Assembly (NCBI GenBank): GCA_019448385.1
Contig: JAGTXO010000050.1
Span: forward strand, 186,001-250,000
Reading direction: 5' to 3'
DNA: 64,000 bases
Origin: Diacronema lutheri
Taxonomy: Eukaryota; Haptophyta; Pavlovophyceae; Pavlovales; Pavlovaceae
The first letter of the stretch is position 1, and each line of letters starts with the position of its first letter. A model generated the notes under the pieces. It ran no database searches, was not told where the DNA came from, and was given only the letters and a program-made list of their open reading frames with translations. A program made the position numbers and the translations under genes. Positions 39,557 to 62,315 of this stretch are shown here, piece by piece.

Positions 39557-40768
39557 ATGGCGGATCCCGCGCTTGCCCGTCGAGCGCGGAGGGTGTGGAT
39601 GGACCCGCGCATGCGCACCCTCCACCGCGTCATGCTCGCCGCGGCGCTCGGCGGCACATTTCTGTTCACCATGCCGGATGGCAGCGGGCCCGTTCTCGCA
39701 TTGCGCCCCGAGCTCGTTGCGCTCCAGCACGCGGCAGCCGGCAAGCTCGCGCCGGTCCTCGCGCGCGACCCGGAGCAGCGCTTGCGAGCGTGCGCGCGGC
39801 ATGCGAGCGGGCAGATCCACGGGCCGGAGACCGTGGCGGCGCCCGCGCGCAACGGCTCGCTTTACCTGATCAACCGCGACAACGCCGTCCGCCGCGCCGA
39901 TCCGGCGGCGGGCGGCTCGTATGCGCTCGCGCGCGGCGACGTCGCGCACCTTGGCCCCGGCCGCGCGGGCGGCAACGTGGTCGACGGCGAGCGCTTGCTC
40001 GTGGCGGACGACCTGAAAGGCCTCGTCGAGCTCGACCTGCGCACCGGCCGCGCGTCGCTCCTCACGCCGCGCCACTCGGCCAACGACCTCGACCTCCACC
40101 CCTCCGACCCGCCGGGCAGGGCTCGAATCCTCTTCTCGCGCTCGACCGTCTTCCCAATCTTGCCCGCGCGCGGCGCGCACAGCGCGTACGACGCGATGGA
40201 TTGGTACGTGCGCTGCGCGCTGCGCGGCGACGCAACGGGCGGCCTTTACGAGTACAATGCCGCGACGCTCGAGACGACCGAGCTGCTCGCCGGCCTCGCA
40301 TTTGCGAACGGCGCCGCCTATTCGGCGGATGGTGCCTTCGCGTTGGTCGCCGAATCGAGCGCGTTCCGCGTGCTGCGCGTGTGGCTGCGAGGCGCGAACG
40401 CGGGCGCGGTCGAGACGTTCGCGCAGGGCCTGCCCGGCTTCCCCGACGGGATCTCGCGCTCCGCCGACGGGCACAGCTTCTGGCTGGCCATCGTCGCGCC
40501 GTACTCGCCTGTCGTTCCCCTCCTGCGCTTTCGGCTTGTGCGCGGCCTGCTTGCGCGCGCGCGCCCGCTGCTCAACATGCTCAAGCGGCCACTCGGGCTG
40601 GTGCTCCAGCTTCGCGCGTCGGACGGAGAGTTGATTGCCGTTTACGCCGACGCGCGCGGCGACGTAGTGAGCGGCATTACTGGTATAGATGGTCAAGCCA
40701 AATCCGATCAGGGGCACGATCGAGCGCCCCGAGTGCAGCGCGGGCCATTCGGAAGGACGTCCTTGTGA
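39557..40768 (+). CDS. Strictosidine synthase-like/APMAP-type beta-propeller protein, C-terminus abnormal
   Basis: 403 residues as read. An N-terminal hydrophobic segment (VMLAAALGGTFLFTM) suggests a type II membrane or secreted enzyme. Family motifs are present: HGPETVA-like (IHGPETVAA), DDLKGLVELD, FANGAAYSADG, LVAESSAFRVLRVWL and LPGFPDGISRS. Members are six-bladed propeller hydrolases (arylesterase/lactonase-like) of uncertain substrate. Homology stops at about GDVVSGITG (about 40,680). The usual last ~25 residues, which close the propeller, are missing, and the frame runs 30 residues into unrelated sequence next to the mobile element. A GTATAG donor at 40,681 with a lost last exon is an alternative. 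Confidence 0.7.
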   Translation: MADPALARRARRVWMDPRMRTLHRVMLAAALGGTFLFTMPDGSGPVLALRPELVALQHAAAGKLAPVLARDPEQRLRACARHASGQIHGPETVAAPARNGSLYLINRDNAVRRADPAAGGSYALARGDVAHLGPGRAGGNVVDGERLLVADDLKGLVELDLRTGRASLLTPRHSANDLDLHPSDPPGRARILFSRSTVFPILPARGAHSAYDAMDWYVRCALRGDATGGLYEYNAATLETTELLAGLAFANGAAYSADGAFALVAESSAFRVLRVWLRGANAGAVETFAQGLPGFPDGISRSADGHSFWLAIVAPYSPVVPLLRFRLVRGLLARARPLLNMLKRPLGLVLQLRASDGELIAVYADARGDVVSGITGIDGQAKSDQGHDRAPRVQRGPFGRTSL

Positions 40769-41089
40769 GGGAGCTCTTCGCGTTTGGCGAGCGGGGGAGC
40801 ACGACGCGCAGCGTTGCTGCGGCGGCGTGCGGGCGGCGAGCAGCGGTCGGGCTGCTCGCGACGAGGCCGGAGCAGACGGCGCCGTGGCCGCCGGCGCAGG
40901 TGACGCGCGCCGACGAGCCGTAGCGAGCGTCCGTGATCCGCACGGCGGTTGGAGCGGGCCGGCTGGTGCGGCGCGCTCGGCCACGGGTGGCGGCGTGCAC
41001 GGGCGTGCCGAATGCGGTACGCGTCGCCAGCCGCGCGCGACCTGGGCAGAGCCCGCAAAGCGTCGACCGCTGCGCGGCTCGGCCGTGCG
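40769..41089. other. 3' flank of the Fanzor gene, candidate guide-RNA region
   Basis: No convincing protein gene. In Fanzor and TnpB systems the guide (omega) RNA usually overlaps or lies just 3' of the nuclease gene and ends at the element boundary, so this stretch, read on the minus strand, is where it would be expected. I see no structure by eye that proves it. Confidence 0.3.
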
Positions 41090-44000
41090 TCAACGCCGGC
41101 CGCGCTTCGGCCCGCGCGCGCTGCCGCCGCCGGCACTGGCGCTGGCAGCTCCGCGGGCGGGGGTGCGGGCGCGAGAGCCGCCGCCGCCACCGCCGCCGCG
41201 CCCGCCGCCGTCGTCGCCACCGCCGTCGCCGCCGCCGCCTCCCCCGCCGTCATCGTCGTCGTCGCCGCCGCCGCCTCCGTCGCCGTCGCCGTCGCCGTCG
41301 CCCTCGCCGCCGCCGCCGTCGCCGCTGCCGTCGTCGTCGTCGTCGTCGTCGCCCTCGTCGTCGCCCTCGTCGTCGCCGTCGCACTCGTCGTCGCAGTCGT
41401 CGCCCTCGCCGTGCACCATGCGCTCCTCACGCTCCCACACCTCGCCGCGCGCCCACCAGGCGAGCACGAGGGCAAAGCGCTCAGGCGTCGACGTGGTGTC
41501 GCGCCCGGCCGCGTGCGCCGCCATGTCGTGCACGTCGTAGAAGATGTTGCGCGCGGCGTTGTAGTCGCGGTGCACGGGCTTCTTGCCGCCGTTGCACGCC
41601 GGGCAGATGACGAGCGCGTGCACCGTGCGCGTGCCGCCCTTTGCCACGGGCAGGCGCGGGTTCTGCGCGAGCTCCGCGCCGCAGCGCTGCAGCCTGCCGC
41701 CCTTGGCGAGCCGCGGCATCGAGCAATGCATCGACGTGTACGGCTCGGGCACGAAGACGGCCGCGACGCCGCGCCGCCGCAGCTCGCGCAGCAGCCCCAC
41801 CTGGAAGGCGGGCGGCGCGCCCTTGGGCTGCGCGCCCTTGTGGTCGCGCAGCCACTTGCCCACGCACACGAGCAGCCGGTCGCGCGTCACGCCGTCGACG
41901 CAGTGCGCCGCGATGAGCGCCTCGGCGACGCACGCCGCGTTGGACCGCCCGCCGCTGTCGCGCCGCCAGCGCTCCTTGCGGCGCGCCGGCGCGTCGTACA
42001 CGTGCTCGGCGGCGCGCTCGCGCACCCGCGCGCTCTCGCGGTGGAAGGCGATGTATTTGCCCGCGTCGAGCACCTTGGCGCTGTGCGCCTCGCCAAGCCG
42101 CGCCTCGTCCGCCTCCACGCTGAACTCCTCGCCGCGCCCGTCCTTGCGCACGCGCCGCCGCGCCGCGTTGGTCTTGGCCGTCTCGCGCGCAAAGCCCGCG
42201 GCGCGCGCGCGCGCGCGCTGCGTGAACTGCCGCCAGACGGCCGCCCGCCCGACGTGCGCAGAGTAGGTGGTGATGTTGCCCATGTTCGGGTCGGCCGCGA
42301 CGACGACCGCCGCCTCGACGTCGATCGCCCGCCGCAGCTCGGAGCCGAGCGCGACGGCGATGCGCCCGTCCGGCCGGCGCCAGCGGTGCAGGACGCCCGA
42401 GCCGCCGGCCGGCGCCTGCGCTTTCGGCACGAGGACGGTCCCGACGGCGTGCACGGCGACGCCGTCCGTCACCACCGACGTGACGGGCTGCCGGCCCGGG
42501 AGCGGCACGCGCGGCAGCGGCGCGAGGCCAACCCACGAGCGCCGCGCGTGCCACGGCAGATCGGCCGGCGGCCGCTCGCGCCCGGCATAGTCGAAGACGC
42601 GGTTGGAGATGTCGAAGCGCGTCGCGAAGACCGCGTACCTGACGCGCACGTCCGACATTGGCGGGTCAAACGAGCTGCCTCGCTTGGTCCATCGAATCGG
42701 CTCGCCATCGTGGTCGCGCAGGTCCAGCGCCTTGAGCCGCGCGCGCAGCTCTTTGCGCTCGTCGTCCGGGAGCGTCTCCCAGATGGCGTTCGCGGTGAGG
42801 CGCACGTTGCGCGGCACCTGCGCGCAGCGCGCGGCGCGCGAGCGCGCGGGCGCGTGACCAACCTGGCCGCGGGGCGGCGCGCACGGCGGCGGCGCGCGCG
42901 CTTGGGCGCTCGGCGGCGGCAGCGGCAGCCGCGCCTCGCGCGCACATTGTGCGTGCGCAGCGGCGCCACATTATACCGCGGCGGCCGGTCGGTGAGCTGC
43001 GTGTACAGGCGCGCGAGCCGGCAGAGCAGCGCCTGCCCCTCGGCCACGTGCTGCAGGTTGCGGATCTGCACGAGGAAGTAGCGCGTCGTGTGCCGGTCGT
43101 AGTTCCACCTTTTCGTGGGCGCGCACCCGTAGTCGATCTTGTGGAGGACCATGTCGGGCAGGTGGCGGTCGAGCGCGGCGGGGCAGCCGACGCGCGCGCC
43201 CTCCACGTCGCCGCGCAGCAGCCGCTCGCACAGCTCGCGCACGCGCGCGTTTCGCTGCATCTCGGGCAGCGCGACGAGCGCCTCGTCGCGCTCGACTGCC
43301 GCGCGGACGACGTCGCGGAGCAGCCCGTTCACGACGCGCGATGGGTGCATCAAGCACGCGGTGGACACCTGCGTCGCCTCCTCCCTGAGGATCTCCGTGA
43401 GGCCCACCGCGCAGACGGGCTGGACGCCCTCGGCCATCTCGCCGACGGCGCGCGCCGTCGCCGCCTTGGTCTGCGCGGCGGCTTGCTCGGCGGGCTTGCC
43501 TCGCGGCGCTGCACCGTACGTGCTCTCGTCCTTGTGCCAGCCGATGGCCGAGAAGATCGCACAGACGGTTCCCTTGTCCATCGTGGTCGACGTGTGCACG
43601 CTGGTCGACGGGCCGCCCGACGCCGCGCCGGCGGCCTGCGCGCTCGCCACCGCAGCCTCGTCGCGCACCACCTTGTTGATGACGCGGTACGCCTGTGTCG
43701 TGAGCCTGTGCACGGCCGCCGCGATGCGCCGCAGCTCCTTCCGCGCACCGGGCTGCGCCGTCACCGCCTGCGGCCCCGCGTTGAGCGTCGAGCGCTTGAC
43801 GACGAAGCCCGAAAGCACGCTGCCGCGCGTGCGCGCCGTCGCGCCGCCGGCGGCGCGCGCGCTCGGCGCAGCGGGCTCGTCCACGCGCGCGCGCTCGACG
43901 CCGCGCGCGCGGGGAACGCTCGGCGCGCGCGCGCCCGCGGCGCCGCGCGCGCTCGCGGCGGCACCCGCCGCGGCGCGCTTGCCCGCGGCGCCCGACACGC

Positions 44001-45400
44001 CGTGCGCGCGAAGCGGCGCCGACGCCAATGCCGACGCCGCGCCCGCGCCGCCGCTGCCCGATCCGCCCGCGCGCCGCTTCTGCTCGTCGCGCGTCTTGCG
44101 GAAATGGGCGACGAGGTCGCTGCTCACGTTGGCCTCAGGCTCCCACGTGTCGGCGCTCTCGTCGTAGCCCAGCCACCTGATCCGAAACTCAAACGTCACC
44201 CGCTTACCCGCCTTGCGGCGCTCGTCGACGATCGCCTCGACCTCGTACGTGCGCGCCTCCTCGTCGACGCTCGCTCCCGCCGCGCTCGCGCCCGTGTCCG
44301 GCCACCCAGCGACCGTGCCGCCCAGCCTCTCGGCGGCCGCGCGCAGCTGCCGCTCGCGCTGGGCGGCCGCGGCGCCTCGCGCGACCAGCGCGGGCAGCAT
44401 GCCCGCGCCGCCCGCGAGGCCGTGCGCGCCGACGCTGGCGGTCATCAGCGCGTCGAGGCACGCGAACGTTGCGAGCGCACGCGCGCCATCGTCGCCGCCG
44501 CGCGGCTGCGAGCGCACGACGGGCGATGGCCGCGGCTCCCCCTCGGCCGCGAGCAGCGGCCAGATCGCACTGGCCAGCGCGACGGCATGCGCGCCGACCG
44601 CGACGGCCACGTCCGCGTCGAGCGGCGCAAAGTCGTAGCGCACGAGCGCGGCCGGGCGCGAGTCGTCCGTCGGCCGGTCGGCGACGAGCAGCCCGACCCG
44701 ACCGGGCGCGGCGGCTCGCCGGACGGCGCGGCGACGGGCACGCAGAGGAGCACGACGAGCAGGCGCGGCGTGCCGCCGAGCAGCGCGCGCGCGGCATCCG
44801 CCCCGTCGGCTCCGCCGCGCGCGGCCGCGGCGAGCAGCTCGGCCGCGCGCGTCGGGCCCAGCGCCGTGCGCGCGTCCTTGCGCGCGCGTGCGCGCGCCGT
44901 GTACGCGGCGCAGGCGTCGTCGAGCACCGCCGCGCTGGGCGCGGTGCCAGTCGTCGCCCACGCGCGCAGCGCGTCGCGCACCCGCGTGACGATCGCCTGG
45001 TCGACTGCCGCCCCGCCGGCAGCGTGCGCCGGCGCGCACGCCGGCGGTGCGGCCGCAGGCGCGAGCGCGGGCGCGCCGTCGGCGCCGTCAACGCCGACGG
45101 CGCCGTCGGCGCGCCGCCACGCGAGCTTCGCCTCGATCTGCTGCCGGACGGCGTGGCAGTGCCGGTCGATGCCGCGCGCGTCGTCGAGCGCGGCCAGCGC
45201 GTCCTCAGCGGCGGGACGGTCGCTCGCGTCCGCGACGGCCTGCAGGCAGAGCAGCGCGGCCGCACGCGCGTTGCACGCGCTCTGCGGCTCGGGCGCGAGC
45301 GCGAGCTCGAGCTCGAGCGGCGACGCGCCTCGCGCCGCGGCGATCGCGTCCATCAGCACGTCCAACCGCTGCACCCGCGCGGCGCGCCCGTCGACGGCGC
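41090..45400 (-). CDS. Chromodomain-Fanzor (eukaryotic TnpB) RuvC nuclease
   Basis: RNA-guided-nuclease family of eukaryotic transposons. The last intron is 42945-42818 (GT-AG, phase 0), joining RTHN to VPRNVRLTANAI. The RuvC triad appears intact: Asp in AADPNMGN (about 42288), Glu in VPEPYTS (about 41745) and Asp in HRDYNAARNI (about 41560). Cys pairs between the last two (HCSMPR, QRCG, CPAC) would form the TnpB-type zinc finger. Upstream are a helical Fanzor N-terminal region and a chromodomain at about 44262-44070 (TYEVEAIVDERR, RIRWLGYDESADTWEPEANV). The C-terminus is a long Asp/Glu/Gly tail (about 41430-41170) and a basic end (GPKRGRR) that may be a nuclear signal. Upstream (45400-44700) a helical region reads on through two frame breaks, so the true start is unknown. 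Confidence 0.75.
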
Positions 45401-48400
45401 GCGCGAGCGCGTCGCCACGAGCCCGAGCGCGCGCGCCGACGGGTCCGCCGGCGTGTGCAGCACGAGCAGCGCCGCGCCCGCCAAGCTCGCGTTGCGCGTG
45501 ACGAGCGCGAAGATGCGCGTCGCCTCGTGCGCGCCCACCGACGCCCAGATCGCAGCGCGATCGGCGTCCGTCTGCGCGTCGCACAGGTCGCGCACGTCGT
45601 CCGGCGCGAGCAGCGCGCCGCCGCCGGCGGAGCGCGCGACGATCGCCCGCGCCTCCGCCACGAAGACGGCCTGCGGCAGGTCGGCGTGGCGCGCGTCGAC
45701 GATGGCGCGCGTCGCGTGCACGCCGAGCTCCACGCCGCGGTAGAAGGCGCGCGCGTTGGCCGCGCGCGCGTGCGCCGGCCGTCCGTCCGCGTTGCGCCTC
45801 GCGCGCGCCTGCTTGCTCGTGCGCGCGAGGCCGTCGCGTGGCGGTGGCGGGAGCGTGGCGAGGAAGCGCGCGGCGGGCGGCGGCGCGCGCACGCCGCGCT
45901 GCCGCCGTGCGATGGCCGCGAGCCGCCGGCCCGCCGCGCTGCCGCCCGCGCCGACGTGCTGCCAGCGGTTGAGCGCCGCCGGTGGCGGCGGCGGCGGCGG
46001 CGCGGCGGCGGGCGGCGGCGCGACGGCGGGCGGCGGCGCGGCGGCGGGCGGCGGCGCGACGGCGGGCGGCGGCGCGGCGGCGGGCGGCAGCGGCGGCGGC
46101 GCGGCGGCGACGGCAGCACCAGTCGGCTTGTCCGCCCGCGCACCCGAGACGCTGTCCCAGGCCTTGCCCGGTGGCGCGCGCCCACGCGGCCGCGGGTGGC
46201 GGGCTCGAGCGGCGGGGGGCGGGCGGCCGGCGCGCCAGTCGAAGACATGTGCAACCGTGGCGGCAGGCGCCGAGTGCAGCGCGTCGGTCACAGAGCGCGT
46301 GGTGCGCGCGGCGACCGTGGCGCGCATGGCGGGCGGGCGGTGAGCAGCGCCCGCCGGCGCGCCGGCGGGCGCGGCAGCCGGCGCGCCGGCGGGCGCGGCC
46401 GCCTCGAGCCCGGCGGAGGCGCCGCGCTTGCGCTTGCGCGTGCCGCCGCGCGTGCGCCTGCGCGCGCGCCCGCCGCGCGCCCGTTCGGCCTGCGCGTCGC
46501 CAGCCGCGTCGCCGGCCGCGTCGCCGCGCCGCACGTAGACGACCGCGAACGCCTCCTCGCCGGTCCCGTCGACGCCGCCGCGCGCGCGGCGCAGGACCGA
46601 CCGCCACTGCAGCCGCCGCGCGCGGCCGGGCTCGCACGCAAACCAGCGCCCACCGCGCCTGACGACGGCCACAAAGTCGTCGTCGCGCCGCCCGCGCCGG
46701 CGCGTGCGCAGCAGCACGCACTGCACGTCGAGCCAGCCCTCGTGCCATTTGGCCGTGCTGGGGGCGACGCGAATCGACTGCGGGAGCTCGACGCCAAAGC
46801 CGGCGAGGCGCACGATGTGCGCGACGATGACGCTCGAAATGGCGGGGGCGCTCGACGGGTCGCCCGCTGCAGCGAGCCCCGCCTCGCCCCAGTGCTCACG
46901 CGTGACGCAATCCGCGTCCTCGACGTGCACGTGCGCCACGCTCGCGCCGAGCTGGTGCAGCAACGCGCAGATGTCGGCGTCGACCGTCCTCTCCTCCTCG
47001 GCCGCCTCGGCCGTGCCGCGGGCGGCGGCGTCGCCCGCCGGCTGCCCGAGGTACGCGATCGCCCGCTCGACGGCCGCGCCCTCCGCACGCGCTGCGCTGG
47101 CGATCGCCGCATTGCCGACGGGCGCGCGCAGCGCCGCGATCGCGTCTTGCAACGCCGTCGCGTCGCCCGTCGCCGCCGCCGCCGTCACCGCCGCCGCGCT
47201 CGCGGTGCCGTGCGCGACGGCGTGCAGCGCGGCGGCGCGCGCGGCGGGGATGCGCCCGTCCAGCGCGAGCACGAGCGGCGGCCCGGCCGGCGTCTGCTGC
47301 CGCCGGTGCCGCCGGCTCGCAGCCGGGTGGTCGGCGCGCGCGCGCTCGAGCCGCGCGCGCCGCTCGACGACGCGCGCCCAGAAGGCCTGCACCCTCGGCT
47401 GCGCGAATGCAAGCCAGCCGGCGCCGCGCGTCACGACGTGCACGACGATCCGGTCCTCGTGCCTGAGGTACTGCACGTAGAGCGCTTTGCTCACGCCGAG
47501 GACGTGCATGCCGAGCTGCAGCTGATCGCGGTGCGGCTGCGGCGGCCCGTCCTCGTGCGCCGTGGCGCCCGCCTTGGTGAGCGTCTTCACCTCGACGAGG
47601 ACCTGCTCGTTGTTTTCGGGGAGGATGGCGAGCCCGTCCGGCGAGAAGGCGAACGGCGCGCTCTTGTCGTGCGGGTCCGCACGCACCATCGGCAGGTTGC
47701 ACACGACGGTGATGCCGTACGCGGCCGCCAGCTTGCGCAGCGCGACGGCCTCGCCGAGGATGCCCGCGGTCGTCGCCTTGGTCCGCACCTCGCGCCGCCG
47801 CCGGTGCACGTACTCGTCGGTGAGCGTCTCGTGCGCGACGCCGGCGTTGTCGTTCACGACGTCGCCAACCTTGCTGCCCGTGACCTCCTCCCATCGCTCG
47901 TCGTGCCAGCGCGGGCTGCGCTGCGCGGGCGCGCCCGCGCCGACGGCGTCGAGCACGCGGCGCAGCGCTGTGCCGTCGGGCGCAGCAGGCACGCGCGCGC
48001 GGTCCTGGGCCTCGCGAGCGTCGAGGACGCAGCCCGTAGTGGAATGTTGGGGTAGGTCGAGCTTGCTCGCCTCGCCGTAGCGGCTCTCCAGCTGGCGTGC
48101 GTCGGCAGGGCCGCCGTCCGTGCGCGCACCCGACGCGCCCGCCAGTGCACGGGGCGCAGCGTCCGAGGCGCCCGCCGCGCCCGCGCCGCCGCCAATCGCG
48201 CCAGCGCACGCGCGCGCCGCGACCTGCGGACGGCCAGCCGCAGGGACCTCGTCCGCTCGGCCGGCCGCTGCGTCGGCCGTCCGCTTGGCCACCTCGCGCA
48301 CGTCTCCGAGCGCGAGCGTGGCTGGCGCCGTCGAGCTCCCGTGGTCTTTGTCCCAAAATTTGAGCAGCCCGCCAAGGAAGGGCGTGCCCGTCGGGCGGTC

Positions 48401-51400
48401 CTCGGGCACCTCCGCCAGGATCGCGTCGACGCGCAGCGCGGCCGCCACATCGCAAAACGCGCGCGCGGCGCGCGCCATCCGCTCGGCGCGCGCGCCGCCG
48501 TCGTCCGCCGCGCGGCGGATGGCGTGGCTCACGCGCGCGACGCGGAGCGAGACGACGGCGTGCGCCGGCGCGTCGGCGCCCGTGCCGAGCGTGTGCCGCC
48601 GGATGGCCAGCTGCCCATCGCCCATGCGCGGCGGCAGCGACGCGCACGCCGCGACGGTCGTCGTGCCGGCCGCGCTGTCGCACAGCCAGCTCGCCTCGCC
48701 GCCGCCCGCAAACTCAAAGGTCGCGAAGCCCTCGCGGCCGAAAAGCGCGACGAAGTGGTCGAGCACCGCCTTGTTGATCGCGCGCGCCGCCGGCCGCGTC
48801 GATGCGCCGCGGGCAGCGCCACCCGCCGCGCCGCGCGCATCGCTGCACGTCGCAGGGCAGGTGCAGCCGGACGCGCGCACGCCGTCCGACCGCGTCCGCG
48901 GCAGCTCGAGCTCGCGCACCTTGGGGCAGAACCAGAGCGGGTTGGACGCCTCGAGGCACAGCACGACGAGCCGCCCGTCCGTGCCGGCCAGCGCGCGCGC
49001 GTCGCGCAGCAGCTCGACGGCGAGCTCGGACGTCGCCGCGTGCACCGCCGGCTCGCCCGTCGCGCGGTCGGGCGGGAAGAGGCCGCCGCCGACGAGCGGG
49101 CTGGGGCAGCGGCCGAGCATCACGAGCAGCGGCGGCGGCGGCGTCTGCGGCGCCTGCTGCCCGACCGCAGCCGCCGTCAGCCCGGCCAGGTCGGAGCTCG
49201 TGCGGAGGGCCTTGAGCGCGACGCGCGAGCCGGTGCCCGCCTGCTCGGAAAACGTGGCGAGCATGGCGCACGTGCTCGCCCTCGCGCCGCACTGCCAGCT
49301 GACGCGCGCGAGGAGGCCTTCCAGCGTGTCGTTTTCGCGCGGCCGCGTGACCGCGTCGAGCGCCGCCGGGCCGAGCTGGAGGCTGCCGGGCGTGACGCAC
49401 AGCACCGCCTCGTGGTAGGCGCGCAGCAGCTCCCTCGGCAGCTGCTCGGCGGGCGTCGCCGCCTGCTCGCCCACCCACCGTACACCGTGGCCGCCGTCGC
49501 CCGCGCCCGCGAGCCGGACCGCCGGCCCGCCCGTGATCGCCGAGGTCGGTGGCGTGCCGAGCGCGTCGACGAGCGCGCGCACGGGCGCGACACGCCTGCG
49601 CGCAGCGTCCGCGCTGACGGCGAGCGCGGCGATCTGAGCGCCCTCCCATGCGCGCTCCCTCGCGTCGTCCCGCGCGGCCGCCGGCGCGGCGCCCGGCCGC
49701 GCGCCGGGCGGCACCGCGCACGCCGCCGCGACGACCTCCGCGCGCGCGCCGGCGGCGTCGGGCGCGTGCAGCTGCGCGAGCGCGCCAAAGAGCGCGGCGG
49801 CCGAGCGGTAGCGGCCGTGCGCCGCGACGAGCGCGTAGAGCACGCGCAGCGCGGCCACGCCCGCCTGGTCGGGCGCGTCGCCAGCGATGCGCCCGACCTC
49901 CCACGTGCGCGTGGGCGGCGGGCTGCCGTCGGCCGGGTCCGGACGCAGCGCCCACGCGCGCTCGACGATCGCGTTGAACACGTCGCGCGCGGCGCCCTCG
50001 TCAAACTCGGCGGCGCCCGCCGCGTGCGCGCACCACCCGTGCACGCGCGACGTGGGCGCATCCACGGCGCGCTGCACGACGAGCACCGCCGGCCGGTCGA
50101 CGCAGCCGAGGCTCACCGCCGCGTGCTTGCCCTCGAGCAGCGCCGCCGCCGCAGCCTCGACCAAGGCGTCACCAGGCGCGTCGCCGACGACGACGGCACA
50201 GCCGTCGCCGTACTCGGCCTGCATCGCGGCGACGCACGACGCGACAAAGTCGCCGCCCGCGGCCGCCGCGTGTCGCGCCGCCAGCATCCGGCGCGCGATG
50301 GCAAGCCAGACGTACTCGGCCGGCGCGCGCGCGGCGCGCGCGCGAGGCGCGCCGGCCGCGCCGCGTGCGCCAGCGCGTGCGCCTCCAGCGGCCGCAACGG
50401 CCGAGGCGGCTGGAGCGGCGGTGAGCGTGCGCCGCGCGCGCTTCGCCGGCCGCGCGATGGGCGATGCACCCGCCGTCGCACCGCCCGCAGCAGCCGGTGC
50501 GGCCGCCACAGCGCCCGCCGCGACGCCACTCGTCACGACGCCCGTGGCGGGCGGCGCGGCGTCGGACGCGGCCGCCTCGACGGGCGTCGCGCAACTACCG
50601 CCAGCGGTCGCGGACGCGCCCGGCGACGCGTCGGCGAGGAGGTGGCGCAGCACGCCGCGCGCGAGCGCGACTCGCACGGCGAGCGTCAGCGCGCGCAGGC
50701 GGTCGGAAGGCGAGGCGTCGCGCTCGGCGTCGGCGGACGTGGCGGCAGCAGGCGGGGCGGCGGGCGGCGCGGCGGCGGACTGGGCGGCCGCCGGCGCAAC
50801 CTCGTCGGCCTTGGCCAGCCAGACGAGCCCGGCGACTGCGAGCACGACGCTGTACGCGCCGACATCGTCACCCGCAACGCGCGCCAGCCGGGCGTGGGCG
50901 TCGGCCTCGGACACGGCGACGCGGAAGAGCACGTCGTCGCGGGCAGCTTGCTCGGCAAACTGACGCAGCTGCTTGGCCATCGTCACGCCGGCGACGCACG
51001 CCTCGCCCGCCTCTGCCTCGACCTGCTCGTCCTGGCCGATGGCGGACGCGCCGGCCTCGGCGCCAGCGTCGAGTGTCCGGCGGCGCTCGAGGGCAAAGCC
51101 ACGCACACAGACGCTCTGGAGGCCGCCGAGCGCGCCCGCCTTCTCGTGCAGCGCGCACGACAGCTCGACCACCGAGTCCACGCGCGTCGCGGCGGCGCCC
51201 CCCCGCTCGCCGCGCGTGGGCGCGCGCACGACGAACACCGTGAATTGCGCGCGCTTCGCCGCGCGCGCCGACGCGCACGCGTGCTTCAGGAGCCGGCAAA
51301 GCGCGGGCCTTTGCGCCGCTGCGCCCCGCGTGCACAGCAGCAGTTGGCCGCGCTCGTCGCCCAGCTCCTGCTCGATGGCGGCCTCGAGCGCGTCGTCCGT

Positions 51401-51614
51401 GAAATCGCCGTGCTCCGTCGAGGCGAGCGCGCGCGCAGCCGCGAGCGCCAGCTCGCCTGCGCCCGCGCGCCGCCGGCGGCGCGCACCGGCGGGCGCGTGC
51501 GGCGCCGACGCGTGTGACGACGCCGCCGCGTCCGCGCGCGCACACGCGGCGCGCAACGCCTCACGCGCCGAGGCGGCCGCGCGCGCCCTGGGCGCGAGCT
51601 TCAAGAACGTGCGC

Positions 51615-51698
<84 letters not shown>

Positions 51699-54180
51699 TC
51701 GCCCGCGTCGCCGGCCGGCGGCGGCGGTGGCGGCGGTGACGGCGCGGCCACGGCGGCGGCAGCAGCGGCGGCGGCGGCGGTGGCGGCGGCGGCGGCGCCC
51801 AGCGCGGGCGGCGGCGGCGTGGCGGCGGCGGTGGCGGCGGCGGTGACGCCAGCGGCGGCCTTGGCGACGCGCGTCTGCGGCGGCGCTTCGGCGCGATCGG
51901 GGCTGCCCCCGCCACGCACCGCGCTCGTGCCCGCGCAGACGCCGCCCGGCGCACGATCGCTGGCCGCGCCGGTCAGCGCGACGCGGAGGCGCTCGCCGAC
52001 AGCGTACATGTCCGCCACGCTGAACGTGCGCGGCGCGGACGAGCAGCCCGCCGCGGCGAGCGCGTCGTTGAGCGCGCCCACTATCGCGAGGCCGCACGTC
52101 GCGCCACGCTGCGCCGCCTCGTCGAGCAGCCGCGCGCGGCGCACGCGCGAAATGTCGAGACCCGCCGCGTGCAGCGTGGCAGTTATCGCCGTGGCGAGCA
52201 CGAGCGCCTGCCTGCAGGGCGACGCGAGCGTGTCGACGAGCACCGCGTCGTAGCGACGCTCGCCCGCGCGCGCGACGCGCACAAGGCGCAACGCGGTGAA
52301 ATGGCCGGAGGCGAGCTGCGCGCCGTCGTCACCGCCCGCGCCGCCGCGCTCGTCCGACGGGCTCCACACGCCGATGACAGCCTGCGTTGTCGCCTCGCTG
52401 CGCAGGCGGTGCAGCAGCGCGGCGCGCTCGGCGTCGTCCTGAAACACCGCGGGTTGCGCGGCGAGCGGCACGTGGCAGACATGCCCGCCGCCGGCCTGCC
52501 CGTGCACGCGCAGCACGACCTCGCAGCACGCGTCGACGGTTGAGGCGAGCATGTCGCCGCTGGCGATGCGCTCCACCTCTGCCTGCGGGAGGCCGGCGCT
52601 CGCGGCGGCGGCGGCCAGCCGGCGCGCAGCCGCGTCGCCCGCCCACGCAAGCAGCGCCGAGTTGGCGGGTTGGAGGGGAAGCTCAAGGGCGGCTGGTTCG
52701 GTGGCGGTAGCCTCGTTGGCAACGGGCACGTTGGCGGTGCGCGCGTTGGCGGCGGGCGCGGCGGCGATGGCTGGTGGGGCGGAGGACACGCCCGCGGCGG
52801 CGGGCGCGGACGCGGCAGCGGCAGCGGCTAGCGGGGCGGGGAAAACGCCGTCGGTGGCAGGCGCGGAGGCGAATGCAGGAGCAACTAGTGGGGCGGGAAA
52901 ATCGGCGGCAGGCGCGAAGGCGGATGCAGCAGCGGCTAGTGCGGCGGGGAAAACACCGTCGGCGGCAGGCGCGAAGGCGGATGCAGGAGCGCCCAGCGGG
53001 GCGCAGAAAACACCGTCGGCGGCAGGCGCGAAGGCGACAGCAGCAGCGGCCAGTGGAGCGGAGGCGCAGGGCCACGCGCGCGCCAGCCGTGCAAGCCCAA
53101 GCCGCGCGCGAGCGACGCACGCGCCGATGGCCGAGGCGGCGGCGCAGGCCACGACGTGGCCTGGCACCGGTGTGGCCAGCCGCTCGCGGGTGTGCACGTC
53201 GAGCCGCGCCCCACGCCAAGAGCGGCGGCGCGCTGAACGGAGGCGCGCGACCCCGATCGATCCGCCCGCGCACGCGCGCGCCGGCTCAGTGTGGCCAACG
53301 CGCGCCGCTATGCAAGGCGCGCGCGCGATAACGGCGGCTGTCGGCCGTGGCGTGCGCGTGGCGGCGCCGCGGCGACGGGCGCGGCACACGAGCCGCTCGG
53401 GCGCGCCGCCGCCGCGCGGCACGATGTCGAGCAGCACGGTCACGCCGCGCGCGCGCGCGACCGCCGTGCACGCGAGCCGCACGGGCAGCGGCGGCCCGTC
53501 CGGGCGCGCGAGCGCCGCCACCTCGGCGTCGGTGAGGCTGTGCAGCTCGCGGCGCGCGCGCGCGAACGCGGCGATGTCCGCGCGCAGCTCCGCGTCCGTG
53601 CCGAGCGCGGCACGCGCGTGCACGGGGAGCGACGCGCGCAGCGCGTGGAGCACGCCGCCGCGCGCGCCGCGCGGCGCCGGCGCGCGCTCGCGCTCAGCGC
53701 GCGCGGCGCGCGTGAGCTCGCGCACCGCGCGCGCGAGATTGCGCCGCGCGGCCGCGACGGGAGGGCTAGGTGCGCGCGCGCGCCGGTTGTAGCGCGGCCG
53801 CGCCGAGTCGAGGGGCGGCGGACGCGGTGCGTACGCCGCGGCGCGGCCCGCGCGCCAAAAGGCCGGCGGCGGGCGCAGCTCCGTCGCGTCGACCGCGGCC
53901 GCGAGCGCGCCGAGCGCGGCGTCGCTGTCGCCCGCCGCGTCGGCCGCGTCGACGAGCACGAAGAGCGCGCCGAGCGCGCGCGACGCGGCCGCCTGCGCGG
54001 CGGTGGGGCGGGCGCAGGCAGCGACGCATGCGGCCGCCATGCCGCGCGCCGCGGCGAACGCCGGTGACGTGACGGCCGCGCCGATGGCAACGGCGGCGGC
54101 GGCGACGGTGGAGGCGGCAGCGCCGGCGATGGAGGTGGCAGCGGCGGCGGCGCTTGCCATCGCGCGGCGCGCGAGACGCG
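45353..54180 (-). CDS. Giant polyprotein segment: Ulp1-like protease plus YqaJ-like nuclease
   Basis: One open frame of nearly 3,000 codons. A Ulp1/C48-like domain lies at about 52310-52090: His in SGHFTALRLV, Asp in VLVDTLAS, and Gln-x4-Cys in AAQRGATCGLAIV, the expected order and spacing type. A YqaJ/lambda-exonuclease-like PD-(D/E)XK nuclease lies at about 47925-47350: SPRWHDERWEEVTGS, GEAVALRKLAA, SPDGL, LVEVKT and HRDQLQLGMHVLG. Ala/Pro-rich repeats and a (GCG)28 poly-Ala tract separate them. The region between (50300-48000) has conserved-looking blocks I do not recognise, including a Cys cluster (GCTCPATC). The frame stops at 45353 but continues in another frame into the Fanzor part. 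The start is unknown; it probably joins the upstream segment by splicing. Confidence 0.6.
45975..46100. repeat. Ala/Pro-coding tandem repeat
   Basis: Units of about 21 to 24 bases alternating GCGGCGGGCGGC and GACGGCGGGCGGC. Read on the minus strand they encode APPPA-type repeats in the giant unit. Confidence 0.85.
51615..51698. repeat. (GCG)28 trinucleotide run
   Basis: About 84 bases of perfect GCG/GGC repeat inside the giant unit, encoding poly-Ala on the minus strand. It is flanked by further GGC-rich imperfect repeats to about 51,850. Confidence 0.95.
52790..53060. repeat. Degenerate ~60-base tandem repeat
   Basis: Four to five copies of a unit encoding SAFAPAADGVFPAPLAAAA-like residues on the minus strand, just upstream of the second Ulp1-like domain. 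Confidence 0.8.
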
Positions 54181-57100
54181 AGGCGCCACCGGCCCGCTGC
54201 GCGCGCGGCGGCGGCGCGCATCGTCGCCGCGCCAGGCGCCGCCGCGCCGACGCCGCCGGCGCCCGCGCCGTCGCCGCTCTCGGCCGTGCAGGGCTCCGAT
54301 GGCGAACCCGGCGTGCGCTGGCGCGTGATGCGCGCGCCGAGGCGCGCGCTCCGTGCCGCGCGGCCGGCGACGTCGAGGAAGCGCCGTGCGCGCGCCGCGC
54401 GCAGGCCACGCGCGCGCAGCGGCGCACCGACAGGCGCCGAGCGCCGCGGCGCGCACGCCGGCGCGTCGCTGTCGGGTTGCGCAGCGCGCGCGCGGGAACT
54501 CGGCGCGGCGTGTGCGGGCGGCGGGCGCGCGCCCGCGCGGCGCAGAGGCGGGAGGCGCCGGCCGCAGACGAGGCGTGTGCGCAACCAGGACGGCGAGGGC
54601 CGCAGGGCGCCGTCGACGTCGCGCATCGGCGGGCCGCGAGCGCGCCGCGCAGCCGTGCGGCGCGCGCGAGGCGCTCGGCGGCGCGCGCGCCGCACGGCGC
54701 GCGCGGCGGCGCGCACGCCAGCGACGGCTGCGGCCACGCCGCGCGCCAACACGGCCGCGGCGTGCGCCATCGCACCGAGCACGGCGCGTGGCGCGCCGAG
54801 CAAGCGCAGCAAGCGCGACGCCGTCGCGCGCGCCGGCGCACCGTGTGCAGGGGCCTCGCCAGCGCCAGCACCGACGCCGCCATCGCCGCAGCCGCAGGTG
54901 GCGTCGCCGCCGCCGCAGGCGTCGCGACGGACGCCGCCGCCGCCGAAACAATCGCCGCACACGTCGCCGCCGACGTTGCCACCCCAGCCGCCGTTGCGTG
55001 CGCAGGTGGCTGCGGCGCGTGCGTGCGGGAGGCGTGCCGTGCGGCGCGCATCACACGGGCTGCGCGACGCGAGCGACGCCGCCGGGGTCCCCGCTGCGCC
55101 AGGCGCGCCGTGCGCGCCAGCCTCGCCGGCCTCGCCGGCGCGCGGTCGCGCGCTCGCCTCGACGTGGCCGCCTCCGCCGCCATCGCCGCCGTCGAACCGG
55201 GCGGCGGAGGGCTGCCGCTCGAACCGCTCGTCGGCGTCGGCCGCCACCGCCGCCTCGCGCTCCGCCGCCGCGGCGGCCGCACGGCGCGCGTGGCGGAGCG
55301 CGCGGCCGCCGTCCGCTGCGCGGCGTGGCGGCGCGGGCGCCGCCTTCGGCGCGCGCGGCCCCTCGGCGCGCTCGCGGAGCACGGCGAGCGGCGTGCCCGT
55401 GGCGACGCTCGTGCAGACGCGCCGCAAGGCGGCGCTTACGCACGCGTGGACGACGCGCGCCGTCCGCTTGTCGGCGGCGCGCGCGGCGCGGCGCGCGGCC
55501 TTGGCGGCGGCCTTTTTGGCGCGCCTCCGCTCCGCCTGCTCCGACAGCGCGCGCGCCTGGCGCTCGGCTGCGAGCGCGTCCTCGGGCGAAACGGTCGGCC
55601 TCGGCGGCCGCGCGCGCGCGCTGCGACGCTGCGCGCTGCGGCGGTCGGACGGCGGCTGCCGCGGCGGCGAGGACGGCGAGCGCGAGCTCGGCGTGGGCGA
55701 CCAATCGCCGCTGACGGTTGCGAGCGGCGCAAACGGGTTGTCGTCCCCGCGCCCCGCGGCGTGCGACAGTGCACGCGGCGTCGGGCGCCGGCCGACCGCT
55801 GGCGGGCCCCACTCGGACGGCGGCTCCGAGGGCGAGCGCGCCGTCGGCGCCGCGCGTTGCGCGGCCGGCGGCGCCTCCCGGTCCAGCGCCGCCTGCTCTC
55901 TCGCCGCGGCCTGCTCGTCACCCTCCGGCACGCCACGCGGCGCGAGCACCGCGGTGGCGCAGCGCGTCGCGTTGAGCAACGCCGCCTCCATCTGCCGCAC
56001 GCTGGCCTTGGCGCACGCCACACCCTGTCTCGCCCGGCGCAGCGCCTCGTGCGCGCGGCGCACATCCGCGTCGGCATCTTCGCGCATGCCAAAGTGCGCC
56101 TGTTGCAGCCGCAGGTCCGCAGGGCGCCCCTGCGCGCGAGGGGCACGGGCGCGGCGGCGCGCGGGTGACGGAGCTGGCGCGCCGCTCTGCGCTGCGCGCA
56201 CGCCAATCGACGAGCGCGCGCGCGGCGGGGCGCGCGCGCGCGCGCGCGCGCGCGCTGCCTACCCAGCCGCCGGCCGGCTCGCGCGAGCGCGCCAGCTGCT
56301 CCGCCGCCTCGGCGTCGAGCACGCGCTGCTGCGCCTCCTCCTCGCCCAGTGCAGCGAGGTGCAGCCGGCGGGCTGCCTTGCGGCAGTTGCCCTCCGCCTT
56401 GCCCACGGCCTTGCGCGCCGCGTCGACGGGGTCGTCGTTGGCTCTGGCGCGCCTGCGCTTGCCCTTGTCGGCGGGCGGCGGCTCGGCGCGCTGCGGCGCG
56501 CCGAGCGCGTCGTCAGCTCCGCACGCGGCCGCCCGCGGGCGGCGGGCCCCAAAGAGCGCACCGGTCGCCGTGCGCGCCGCGCAAGCAACGACCAGCGCTG
56601 ACATGCCGGCGAAGACCGCACCGCCCAGCGCCACGGTTGCCACGATGCGCAGCGTCCCGTGCGCAGGCCGCGCTGCCTCCGCCGCTTTGGCGGCCTCGCG
56701 CGCGCGCGCATCGGCGGCTCTCATCTCGTGCAGCAGCCCGGCCGCGCCGCTCGCGCCGTCGCGGCCGCGCGCGAGCTCGCACAGCACCGCCGCCGCGCGC
56801 CGCGTGGGCTCGCGCGCGAGCAGCTGCGCGCCGCCGTCGGGGCGCAGCTTCTCAACGAACTCGACAAACGTCGCGTCGCGCCAGAGGGACATGCGGTAGG
56901 CCCTGTGCACCGCCCCCTCGTGCTCGCGCATCCGCCGTGCCGCCCGCCTGCCGTCGCGCGCGTGCGCGTGCGCGGCCGCGTCGACTCCCGCGACGCCGCG
57001 CTGCGCGTCGCGCGCGGCCGACGACGGCGCCGCCGCGCTGCCCGCCAAGGGCGCCGCAGCGGCGACGCGCGCGTGCGGAGCGACGGGATCGCCGGCGGCC

Positions 57101-59930
57101 GGCGGCTCGGCGCGCTGCGGCGTGCCGTTTGCTCCGCGCGCGGCCGTCCCGGGGGAGATGGCCGCGATGGCGCCGCCAGCCGCGCCGCGCGCCAGCCACG
57201 CGCATAGGCTGCCGACGAGCTCGCCGAGACCCCCGACGGTCGCCGCGGCGGCGAGTGCGCCGGGCTTGCCGGCCGACAGCGGCTCGCGAGCGTCGTCGTC
57301 GCAGCCGCCGGCACCCGTCTTGGCGAGTGCGTCGCGCTCGCCCTCGACGCCCGCCACGACCGCCGCCCCTCCGTCGTCCGCCGCGCCGGCCGCGCGCGCG
57401 GCCGGGCGCAGAGGAGGCGTGCCGGTGCAGCCGTCGCCGCTCGTCTTCGCCGTTTCCTCCACCTTGGTCGCTTCGTCGCCACCTGCGCCATCTCCGACGC
57501 CGGGGCCCTTGGTCACGCTTGCCGCCATGCGCGCCGTGCCCGCCGGCCAGCCCGCCGACTGCTCGAGCGCGGCGGCGAGCGGCGCGACGCGCGCCGACTC
57601 GGGCGCGCTCTCGTCATCGGGCTCGAGCGCGTTGTGCAGGCGCGCGAGCGCGCGCGCGACGGCCGCGGCGCCACTGCCGGGGGCGCGGCTCGCCGCGCGC
57701 GCCGCCAGGCCGGCACGAACATGAGCGCCGACACGAGCGCCGCGAGCGCGCGCGCCTCGCGCGCGTCGCTCGTGCCGAGGCGCGGCGGCACGCGCGCGGC
57801 GCCGCGCGGCGCGGTGCCTCGGAAGCGTGGGCTCAGCGTGTAGGCGAGGTGCTGCGGCACGCCGCGCGCCTCCGCGATCGCGCGTCCGTCCTCGACCTCG
57901 CGCCACGCCTTCGCGATCGCCGGCGTGGCGCGCGCGAGCCAGTCGGGGTCGGCGGGCAGGTGGATCACGACGAGAATCGGCGCCCAGTCCAGCCGCGGGT
58001 TCTTGTGACGGTCGGGCACGACCCACACGAGCAGCACCGTGCCCTCCGCGCCGCACGCCGCCTCGTAGATCCTGGGCTGCGAGCGCCAATCGGGCCTGAC
58101 GCGCAGCGCCCGCGCGTGGTCGATGGCGGCGGCGCGGTCGCCATTGAAGTGAACCGACGTCACCTCGCCGATGACGGACCGGCCGGACCGCCAGCAGAAC
58201 ACCGCGTCCGCCGACCCGCCGGCGATGGCCGCGAGCGATTCGGGCGCGGCGAGCCGCGGCAAGCCCTCGAAGGCGGCAAAGTCCTCGTGCGCATTGTACA
58301 CGCCGCCCCAGCCGTCGTGCGCGTACGCGCGCGCGGCCGCTCGTACCGCGCGCGGCTGGTTCTCCACGCCCGACGTCATGTGCCATGTCGTCCCCGCGAA
58401 GCCGCGCTCGCCCAGCTCGGCCCGCACGACGGTACCGTACCCCGCGCCCTGCGTCGGGGCGGCGAGGTGGTGCATGCCCGCGCCGGTCACGCCCTCCGTG
58501 CGCTGCCGCGTGACGATCGTGCCCGTCGCGTGCGCGAAAAGCGTGTCGACCACGGCGGGCGCGCGCCCGCTGTTCGCCCGCAGCCGCGCCCTACCCGCTT
58601 TTAGCTGCTCGGGGTCCTTGGCGTCGTACACGCGCGCGTCCGCGTCGCCCTCATCAGGCGCAGTGTGGACGCAGCGGCGTCCGAGCGGCGCCGAGCCACC
58701 GCCGTCCGCCGCCGCCGGCGAGGTTGGCGCCGCGCCCGCCGCCACCGCGCTCGTCGCCGCCGTGCCCGTCACCACCGCCGCAGCCGCCGCGCCCGCGAGG
58801 TCGTCGTCCCCGTCCTCCGCGCCCTCCCCGTCGTCAGCGGTGGTGGCGTCGCCATCGTCCCCGTCGCCCTCGCCCCCGCCGAGGCTGCTGAATGGTCGGG
58901 GCCCCCACGCCGAGGCGGCGCGCCGCTGCGGCGCACGCGGCGGTGGCGCTCGCGACGGCGGCCTTGGCGCCGCCGCGCCGCGCGGCCTGGCCGCCGTCGA
59001 CAGCGCGCGGCCTGCAGCGCCCGTGAGCGCGTCGAGCGCGGCCGTGCGTGCGATGCGGTCGTCGGGCGCGCGCAGCGCCGCCTCGACGGCCTGCAGCAGC
59101 CCGTCGGGCGCGGATCCGCCGACACTGGCATCGCACGCCTCGGCGAGCCGCGCGGCCTCGGCGAGCCGCGCGGCCTCGCGGGTGAACGGGCCGAAGCGCC
59201 TGGCGCGGTCGCCGAGCAGAGCGCCGATGGCGGCGCGGAGCGTGCGCGCGCGGGTCTCCTCGTACGCGGCCGTCGTGAGGCGCGCGAGGCGCGCGTCCAA
59301 AGCCTTCTTGATGTCGACAAGGACACTCGCGCGGCGGCCGTAGAGCGTCGATGCGCTCGCCACGACCTCGGCCGCGACTGTTGCCGCGGCGAAGCAACAC
59401 GCGGCCCCACTCTGCGGGGGCGCCTTGAAGGCATCGATGGGCGGCGCTGTTCTGCCGATGCGCTGCGCAAGCTTCTTGATGAGCACGCCGGCCGCCGTGG
59501 CGTACGCCGATTCGCCGTTGCCCAAGGTGCGCGAATCGGCGAGCAGGGCGAGCGCGGCGCCGGGCGGCGCGCCGCGCTGCGCGGGCGGCGCGAGGAGCAG
59601 GTACGCCGCCGTCCAGTGCACGAGGCCGCTGGACGCGCGGAGGCAGAGCGGTAGCACGACCACGAGCACCTGCCCAAACCGGTCCGCATCCGCGCATGCT
59701 TTGCGCAGGTTGCGCAGCGCCACCTTGAGCGCATGCTGCGAGCACCCCGTGTCGCCCACCCTAACCCTGCTCGTGCCGAAATCCGCGTAACGCAGCAGGG
59801 CGATGAGGCAAGTGGATGGGACCACGTGGGGGTGGGTATCTCCCGGCGACAGAATGGTGCTGAGGGCCAGCGAGAAACTGTCCGAGCCGCCCCGCCCGCC
59901 GGGCAAAGCGTCCTTCACGGAGTCCTCCAT
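54181..59930 (-). CDS. N-terminal part of giant unit: Ulp1-like domain, membrane helix, coiled coil
   Basis: From the ATG at 59930 (MEDSVKDALPGGRGG). A C48-like domain lies at about 59720-59350: His in SGLVHWTAAYLLL (59614-59616), Asp in LLADSRT and Gln-x4-Cys in PPQSGAACCF. A second conserved block at about 58480-57860 has WGGVYNAHEDFAAFEGLPRL. After a short intron or frame break near 57690, the frame continues with a hydrophobic helix at about 56640-56570 (GGAVFAGMSALVVAC) and a Lys/Arg-rich helix, then a GTAGG donor near 56262. Downstream is a coiled-coil segment (about 56125-55900) and a low-complexity Arg/Ala-rich stretch. Exon joints are not fully resolved; it may be one gene with the downstream segments. 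Confidence 0.5.
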
Positions 59931-61229: not shown

Positions 61230-62275
61230 GGTGTCGCCAACGGGGGCACGGGCGCGACTTCGGTCCGCCTCTCGACGGACGCAGGCGACGCTGCCGGGAA
61301 CTTCCCCGACGCCTGCACATCCAGGGCTTCGAGGTACAGAGCTGGGCAACAGTGCCGCTCGTCACCGATGAGGCGGCCAAGCTCGCTATCCTTGCTGCCC
61401 TCGGCTCCACCAAACAGCCGGGCGACCCAACGGTTCGTGATCGCCTGGCCGCCAGGTGCGAACCGCGCCCGTGCAAGCGCTTCACCCGCATTCTCCGCCC
61501 CGCTGCGGACGTCCGCCTGCCGGCCGCGAACACGGCCGGTGCGCGTTGCCGCCTGGCCCAACACGAAAACCCGCCCGCCCCCGAGGCCGCAGGTCCTGCC
61601 TGCCCAAGCGCAGCCCAACGGCACGCAGACAGCCCGCCTTGGCAACCGACTCGTGCGCGAGCGCTCCGCCCTCCACAAGAGCCTGCCCCACGCCACCGCC
61701 GACGCGGAGCCAGCGCAGCCGACGCCCCTCCGCGACGCTCGCGCCGCAAGGCGCAAGGGCCCCGGCGAGACGTCGTCAACCAAGCCCGCCGCTGGCACAG
61801 CGCCGGCACCCGGAGCCCACCCCAAGCCCCCGCGCACGCCTCGCCCCCCCCCCCCCCCCCCCCCCCCCCCCCGATCGGCGGACCGATTGCGTTTTGGCGC
61901 GCCAGGCTCAAAGCGCCATCGCAGTGGCGGGCCCGCAGACGCAGACGCGGACATGCCCAACGCTGGGCACTGAGGCCGCAGGCCGGCCCTCCTGGACCTG
62001 GCGGGCGAGCTGCCCGCGCAGCGGCCACGCGAGCCTCGCACTGACCGTGGCGGTCGCTGCCACCGTGATAGCTGCGGGTGCGGCGGCCTTGGCCCCAACC
62101 CCATCATCCGTCTTCATCCCCGCCCTGCTCGCGCTCGCGGCCTACGTCGGCAATCCCTGCACCGGGATCCGCCCCGCGAAGTCCACACAAGACTTATCCG
62201 TGCTGCACGCCAGCCGCGCGCGCCGACGCGCGCCGCTCCCACACGCTCACCTCCGTTTCCGCGGGCGGCCCAACG

Positions 62276-62315
<40 letters not shown>

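What the first reader, a model, noticed from the sequence alone, without database searches (positions are those of the whole stretch)
41090..44262. Chromodomain fused to a Fanzor RNA-guided nuclease
Seen: a complete chromodomain signature (TYEVEAIV, RWLGY, TWEPEANV) in the same minus-strand frame as the Fanzor N-terminal region, spliced to an exon with RuvC Asp-Glu-Asp residues and RDYNAARNI. Known: Fanzors are eukaryotic TnpB relatives carried by transposons. Chromodomains bind methylated histone tails and steer some retroelement integrases to heterochromatin. Inference: this nuclease may be targeted by chromatin marks as well as by its guide RNA. I know of no described Fanzor with this fusion.
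Basis: partly seen in the sequence, partly recalled or inferred. Interest (0 to 1): 0.92.

Follow-up and report, generated by a model that had tools for sequence, protein, structure and literature searches.

The report
Chromodomain–Fanzor fusion in giant algal transposon
A histone-reading chromodomain sits in front of an RNA-guided DNA-cutting enzyme (Fanzor) inside a huge mobile element that is repeated about two hundred times in an alga's genome, hinting at a DNA cutter that may also be steered by chromatin marks.

Summary
A chromodomain (Pfam 9.3e-12) shares one minus-strand frame with the N-terminal half of a Fanzor; the RuvC/zinc half follows in another frame. Codon usage shows coding to ~42970, no signal for ~150 nt, then coding from ~42820: intron-like, exact sites unsettled.

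This is the 3' end of a ~31 kb element filling window 40683-64000 and running 7.6 kb beyond. The genome fits the Diacronema lutheri assembly and holds 228 left and 222 right element ends. In 102 of 146 scored copies the chromodomain lies in an open frame of at least 4000 codons; 200 chance sequences reached at most 1297. So the chromodomain is part of a giant protein, not a plain two-domain fusion.

The element has a Helitron-type helicase, no TSD over 2 bases in 19 paired copies, and no recognised Rep or transposase. RuvC D-E-D is present. The window copy is the most diverged of nine compared and its upstream frame is broken. Guide RNA, histone binding and cleavage are untested. My searches listed no chromodomain-Fanzor in print.

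The parts
40683..64000 (.). Part inside the window of a ~31 kb mobile element; it goes on 7,562 bases past the window (C72:226683-257562). Gene 3' end is at 40683.
   Evidence: Eight other stretches align at 97.4-98.7% and end at window 40680-40696, five of the eight at 40683; whole extent; 228 left and 222 right ends in the genome, reversed-pattern control 0. This copy lacks the last ~102 bases at the far end.
44095..44247 (-). Chromodomain with Tyr, Trp and Tyr in the places of the methyl-lysine cage (cage positions recalled from HP1)
   Evidence: PF00385 9.3e-12 here, 5e-13 in copy L005; the L005 chromodomain matches CDYL 1.8e-11 and HP1 1.7e-9 by sequence
43825..44094 (-). Linker rich in Ala, Gly, Arg and Ser between chromodomain and Fanzor; its boundary with the Fanzor is set by eye
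   Evidence: translation, no Pfam match
42946..43824 (-). N-terminal half of the Fanzor, same frame as the chromodomain (start set by eye)
   Evidence: hhalign score 25.7 against shuffled maximum 19.6 of 60, E 0.009, probability 4.4%, colinear with L041/L042; alignment A3
42818..42945 (-). Probable intron, GT...AG, 128 nt; exact ends not settled
   Evidence: no codon signal in any frame from about 42970 to 42820; rank 4 of 126; homology scans inconclusive
41090..42817 (-). C-terminal half of the Fanzor: RuvC Asp 42292, Glu 41746, Asp 41566, zinc part, acidic Gly-rich tail, stop
   Evidence: PF07282 2e-6; BLASTP to Fanzor L042 2e-10, 25%; alignment A2; A2 profile to S. punctatus Fanzor 8gkh 3.3e-9
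40683..41089 (-). 3' non-coding end of the element, candidate place for a guide RNA (inference)
   Evidence: folding close to shuffles: z -1.25 for 407 nt (13 of 100 shuffles as good), -1.67 for 150 nt (8 of 200); no Rfam match in 36000-64000
45353..55435 (-). Giant upstream frame (3360 codons here). In other copies it is continuous with the chromodomain frame, about 4500 codons in all.
   Evidence: 102 of 146 scored copies have the chromodomain in a frame of at least 4000 codons
47498..47908 (-). YqaJ-like nuclease domain, weak match
   Evidence: PF09588 E 0.024, 15.4 bits, below the cut-off of 22; E 0.023 in another copy
63305..64000 (-). C-terminal piece of a ubiquitin-specific protease
   Evidence: PF00443 0.0055, below cut-off, here; 4.3e-8, above cut-off, in the full frame of another copy, L019:876-2369

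Best explanation
This is the 3' gene of a ~31 kb, high-copy mobile element of a haptophyte (assembly figures match Diacronema lutheri). The gene encodes a giant protein whose C-terminal part is a chromodomain, a low-complexity linker and a full-length Fanzor split by a short probable intron. Shown by sequence: the domains, the long shared frame in most scored copies, the RuvC D-E-D, the number of element ends, the lack of TSDs in paired copies and the Helitron-type helicase. Inferred: the element spreads by a rolling-circle-like route using its helicase and a Rep supplied in trans. The Fanzor, loaded with an RNA from the element's end, cuts DNA at empty or sister sites so that repair copies the element back, as proposed for TnpB (PMC10432273 passage). 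The chromodomain holds this protein on methylated histone tails and so biases where it cuts or where new copies settle.
For: Chromodomain 9.3e-12 and Cas12f1-like TNB 2e-6. Frame of at least 4000 codons around the chromodomain in 102 of 146 scored copies; longest in 200 Markov sequences of that length and composition 1297. Codon-position G+C favours that frame in 31 of 33 windows of 300 nt from u 18,901 to 28,800 of the C9 copy, then the RuvC frame; codon usage leaves a ~150-nt gap at the junction. RuvC half to Fanzor L042 2e-10; A2 profile to SpuFz 8gkh 3.3e-9. N-half colinear with Fanzors. 228 and 222 ends. TSD 0, 1 or 2 bases in 14, 4 and 1 of 19 paired copies. Helicase: PIF1 1.8e-24, best solved match Helraiser 3.9e-25 against Pif1 4.6e-6. 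A Rep-bearing Helitron relic on C63 (8.3e-23) shares 92% DNA identity over 128 bases with the element's helicase gene.
Against: No Helitron Rep in the element: Helitron_like_N has one match in the genome, on C63; 17 HUH-like strings in three frames of the C9 copy, three of them inside the giant frame, did not look like a Rep by eye. Ends are not TC...CTRR. Left and right ends are nearly equal in number, so there is no 3' excess. Only 6 of 12 windows in the first 3.5 kb of the giant frame favour it. RuvC-I reads DPN, not the DPG of L040/L042, though SpuFz itself prints as DPN; the first zinc knuckle is not CxxC. The alignment of the first Asp differs between A2 and A1/BLASTP. Plain frameshift models score about as well as the intron by homology. 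The 3' end folds little better than shuffles. L043, a derivative, lacks chromodomain and Fanzor N-half. Substitutions among nine copies show no clear codon periodicity. No transcript, histone-binding or cleavage data.
Confidence: 0.6

Rival explanations
1. Polyprotein reading: the chromodomain belongs to the upstream part, and the giant protein is cut into pieces, so the mature Fanzor carries no chromodomain.
For: The frame is continuous for about 4500 codons in most scored copies; the element encodes a ubiquitin-type protease; about 90 residues of low-complexity linker separate chromodomain and Fanzor.
Against: No processing site was looked for or found. The chromodomain is the recognised domain nearest to the Fanzor.
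Confidence: 0.25
2. Passenger reading: chromodomain and Fanzor are hitch-hikers in an element that moves by other means, and the nuclease is inactive.
For: Unusual zinc spacing; one derivative copy lost the chromodomain and Fanzor N-half; no clear codon periodicity in substitutions among copies.
Against: The long frame is kept in 102 of 146 scored copies; D, E and D are invariant in A2. DPN is no mark of inactivity, since the Spizellomyces Fanzor, reported active (PMC10432273, title and abstract start), prints as DPN. For this reason I lowered this rival from 0.2 to 0.15.
Confidence: 0.15
3. Separate genes: the RuvC part is its own gene and only overlaps the giant frame.
For: Different frames, whose open stretches overlap by 1363 nt in the C9 copy.
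Against: Codon signal runs to within about 150 nt on both sides, each half alone is only half a Fanzor, and the first Met of the RuvC frame lies inside the region that aligns to Fanzor L042.
Confidence: 0.07
4. The two frames are joined by a translational frameshift, not by splicing; the product would be the same chimera.
For: Frameshift models score about as well by homology (48 against 46; 291 against 289).
Against: A stretch of about 150 nt without codon signal in any frame fits an intron better.
Confidence: 0.1

Closest known systems
Spizellomyces punctatus Fanzor (SpuFz, PDB 8gkh)
   Same: RuvC-I DPN, displaced Glu before the zinc part with TS after it; found by the A2 profile at 3.3e-9
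   Different: No chromodomain known to me; 633 residues (PMC3627910 passage); here the Fanzor is the end of a giant protein
Fanzor1-bearing Helitron2 elements CRe-1, -2, -3 of Chlamydomonas (PMC3627910 passages)
   Same: A Fanzor1 gene carried by an element with Helitron affinity, in an alga
   Different: Here ~31 kb, flanks without the TTTT described there, no excess of 3' ends, no Rep found, and a chromodomain; asymmetric terminal repeats were not formally tested
Chromoviruses (Ty3/Gypsy retrotransposons with a chromodomain on the integrase; recalled; chromodomain named as accessory domain of LTR elements in a PMC6338049 passage)
   Same: Transposon-encoded chromodomain near an enzyme that acts on DNA
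   Different: No reverse transcriptase or integrase match in the frames scanned; the enzyme is a Fanzor
Helraiser (bat Helitron, PDB 7lcc)
   Same: The element's helicase is closest to it among solved structures, 3.9e-25
   Different: No HUH Rep domain found in the element

Membership tests
Fanzor | Motif D-X(125,275)-[TS][TS]-XX-[C4 zinc finger]-X(5,50)-RD (PMC3627910, abstract and passages) | tested here: met
   D176, T361 S362, C365, C405 C408, R417 D418 in A2, 184 residues between D and TS; the first knuckle has other spacing
Fanzor | Glu six residues before the first zinc Cys (PMC10711439 passages) | tested here: met
   E358 to C365, sequence EPYTSMHC
Fanzor | DPG at RuvC-I, near exclusive in Fanzors (PMC10711439 passages) | tested here: not met
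   DPN in the window and in the C9 copy; L040 and L042 have DPG. Not decisive: SpuFz itself prints as DPN
Fanzor | Profile or sequence match to known Fanzors | tested here: met
   A2 profile to 8gkh 3.3e-9, but three of its four rows are other Fanzors; the RuvC half alone found no Fanzor, Cas12f1 at 0.76
Fanzor | Guide RNA and RNA-guided cleavage | not testable with these tools
   3' end folds little better than shuffles
Chromodomain | Profile match over the whole domain | tested here: met
   PF00385 positions 1-52 of 53
Chromodomain | Three aromatic cage residues (positions recalled from HP1) | tested here: met
   Y, W, Y align with CDYL in the L005 copy; the window copy has the same three
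Helitron | Helitron-type helicase | tested here: met
   Helraiser 3.9e-25 against Pif1 4.6e-6
Helitron | HUH Rep domain | tested here: not met
   Helitron_like_N only on C63, not in the element; Pfam scans of the element's long frames found none
Helitron | 5'-TC...CTRR-3' ends (Helitron1) | tested here: not met
   ends CTATATACGG and CCATCTATAC in gene orientation
Helitron | No TSD and no TIR | tested here: met
   19 paired copies: 14 with no matching base, 4 with one, 1 with two; no inverted repeat of the ends by eye only

The most novel reading that the evidence does not exclude
A giant rolling-circle-like element carries an RNA-guided nuclease that is also addressed by histone methylation, so that guide RNA and chromatin mark together choose the site; the element used this to fill roughly a seventh of its host's genome.
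Probability: 0.25. Interest if true: 0.92.

Novelty: new variant of a known kind. Interest (0 to 1): 0.75.

Why it matters
No Fanzor with a chromatin-reading domain was listed in my searches. The biological role of Fanzors is described as unknown (PMC10432273 passage). A Fanzor tied to a chromodomain in a very abundant element gives a direct test of whether these nucleases serve transposition and whether chromatin marks can address an RNA-guided cutter. It also offers a natural design for a chromatin-restricted nuclease. The element may account for much of this genome's repeat content that is neither LTR nor LINE (inference).

Tried and rejected
Tried without result: relatives in viral contigs (none; two loci, L044 and L045, which by eye read as ordinary TnpB proteins). 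Intron choice by homology: not discriminating. Substitution pattern among nine copies: 143 variable sites, no clear periodicity. RNA folding of the 3' end and Rfam: nothing. HUH string search: 17 strings, no convincing Rep. Structure prediction: switched off. Solved-structure search with the RuvC half alone found no Fanzor; the A2 profile did, but three of its four rows are other Fanzors.

Rejected: that contig ends show a preference for telomeres. Contigs C1 and C12 begin at the element's end, but contigs may simply break in long repeats. Also rejected: an excess of 3' ends, since 228 and 222 ends are nearly equal. SUMO-protease-like stretches in the giant frame were noted by eye only; Pfam gave no support, so they are not claimed.
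Full report
What is in the sequence. The minus-strand frame 42469-45084 holds a chromodomain (PF00385, 9.3e-12) and the frame 41093-42970 a Cas12f1-like zinc domain (PF07282, 2e-6). The RuvC residues are Asp 42292-42290, Glu 41746-41744 and Asp 41566-41564. They are invariant in alignment A2 with L040, L041 and L042, other Fanzors of the same genome. In alignment A1 and in BLASTP the first Asp is not set against the DPG of those Fanzors, the Glu and last Asp are. BLASTP with L042 gives 2e-10 and 25% identity over 389 residues of the query. The A2 profile finds the Spizellomyces Fanzor 8gkh at 3.3e-9; that Fanzor prints as VVVIDPNKRD there, so the window's DPN has a precedent in it. The RuvC half searched alone found no Fanzor in the PDB; its best Cas12f1 match had E 0.76.

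Is it one protein? The stretch between chromodomain and junction matches the N-half of Fanzors L041/L042 in colinear order: hhalign score 25.7, at most 19.6 in 60 shuffles, E 0.009, but probability only 4.4%. BLASTP alone is not significant there (E 3.9). A codon-usage score trained outside the junction favours the chromodomain frame down to about 42970-43000. It favours no frame for about 150 nt, and then the RuvC frame from about 42820. That is what an intron would give. The join is likely; its exact place, and whether it is made by splicing, are open.

The setting. The genome has 43.49 Mb in 103 contigs. This fits the published Diacronema lutheri assembly of 43.50 Mb, 103 contigs and 73.25% G+C (PMC8379373, passages). 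The window copy starts at 40683 and runs to C72:257562. Other copies carry about 102 more bases at the far end. With up to two mismatches, 228 left ends and 222 right ends are present; the reversed patterns give none. From 100 of 228 left and 44 of 222 right ends a script paired 26 copies, mean 27.4 kb, range 12.7-31.1 kb. About 220 copies would then be some 6 Mb, or 14% of the genome; this is an estimate that takes every end as one such copy. Over 6.5 kb, eight copies are 99.3-100% alike, while the window copy is 98.1-98.5% like them. Its frame is broken upstream of the chromodomain.

The giant frame. The chromodomain search scored 150 of 260 candidates. Leaving out four rows, at the three places with other sequence (C30, C5, C69), 146 remain; 102 of these have the chromodomain in an open frame of at least 4000 codons, 115 of at least 3000, and 8 of under 1000. 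In 200 Markov sequences of the same length and composition the longest frame was 1297 codons. Codon-position G+C favours this frame in 31 of 33 windows from u 18,901 to 28,800 of the C9 copy, but in only 6 of 12 windows before that. A YqaJ-like domain upstream is weak (0.024, below the cut-off).

Other genes and mobility. The long frames with recognised domains all lie on the minus strand; a short plus-strand gene at the far end was guessed by eye only. A helicase beyond the window matches PIF1 at 1.8e-24 and Helraiser at 3.9e-25, far better than Pif1 (4.6e-6). Like the Fanzor, it is split between two frames. A ubiquitin-specific protease reaches 4.3e-8 in another copy. Of 19 paired copies, 14 show no matching flank base, 4 one and 1 two, so there is no TSD. 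Flanks are 44-67% G+C at the positions counted (99 left, 76 right flanks, the forced outermost positions left aside), against 73% for the genome, so sites look locally AT-richer. A Helitron Rep match exists once in the genome, on C63. The DNA there shares 92% over 128 bases with the element's helicase gene. The element therefore has Helitron affinity, but it fails the Rep and the end-sequence tests. I leave its class open.

What the chromodomain may do. The L005 copy's chromodomain matches CDYL and HP1; it and the window copy keep Tyr, Trp and Tyr at the cage places (positions recalled). Methyl-lysine binding is a reasonable expectation, but inference. Two other Fanzor frames in this genome, L041 (1136 codons) and L042 (1233 codons), have no chromodomain match. 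Of 148 zinc-domain matches, 31 score above the element's usual 31.3-31.5 bits; five of these were fetched (L039-L043), L039 only in a frame that did not read as a Fanzor, and 26 were not read, so I cannot say that the fusion is limited to this element.

Literature. Searches for Fanzor with chromodomain (3 papers, passages read only in PMC6338049, which speaks of both but not of a fusion), with haptophyte (40; 1), with Helitron (41; 4), with catalytic and domain terms (45; 53 papers, 25 listed), with 'widespread in eukaryotes' (95; 11, 10 listed) and with heterochromatin (96; 6), and for chromodomain with Helitron and algae (97; 6) or with PIF1 and giant (48; 1), listed no title or abstract start that reports this fusion. 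For PMC3627910, PMC10711439, PMC10432273 and PMC8379373 I saw passages; in PMC11423790 the six terms I looked for had no hits; the other papers I saw only in listings. Only open-licence papers are held, so this is not proof of absence.

Verdict. A real and unusual domain combination in a very abundant element. The fusion is well supported at the DNA level, less so at the N-half of the Fanzor and at the exact junction. The chromatin-targeting idea is plausible and untested.

Noticed in passing
L046 (C63:34500-38500): The only Helitron Rep match in the genome (8.3e-23), on a degraded locus that shares 92% over 128 bases with the element's helicase gene.
   Followed up: partly
window 39284-40682 (+): A strictosidine-synthase-like gene (PF03088 1.5e-10) reads into the element at 40683, so the insertion seems to cut off its 3' end.
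   Followed up: partly
L040, L041, L042: Other Fanzors of the same genome with DPG and displaced Glu; no chromodomain match in L041 and L042. L040 and L041 look like one family by eye.
   Followed up: partly
G000: 31 of 148 zinc-domain matches score above the element's usual 31.3-31.5 bits; some are element derivatives (L043), 26 were not read.
   Followed up: no
L043 (C49:212300-216000): A derivative copy in which the upstream frame joins straight to the RuvC part, without chromodomain or Fanzor N-half, and reading DQN for DPN.
   Followed up: no
window about 60450, 61847, 62277, 62872: Several long poly-C or poly-G tracts inside the element.
   Followed up: no
right flanks: Seven of 84 right flanks contain TAACGA just outside the element (for example TACTAACGAC), perhaps a shared target repeat.
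   Followed up: no
L029:2912-4297 (-): The N-terminal part of the helicase protein has an unidentified domain where a Helitron Rep would be; by eye it recalls an ssDNA-binding domain of giant viruses (recalled, not tested).
   Followed up: no
far end of the element, C9 copy, element positions about 29250-30250 (+): A possible small plus-strand gene in pieces, seen by eye; no Pfam match for the plus frames of the window copy there.
   Followed up: no
window 38491-39537 (+): Host-like gene with YccV (3.3e-13) and UVR (2e-7) domains.
   Followed up: no
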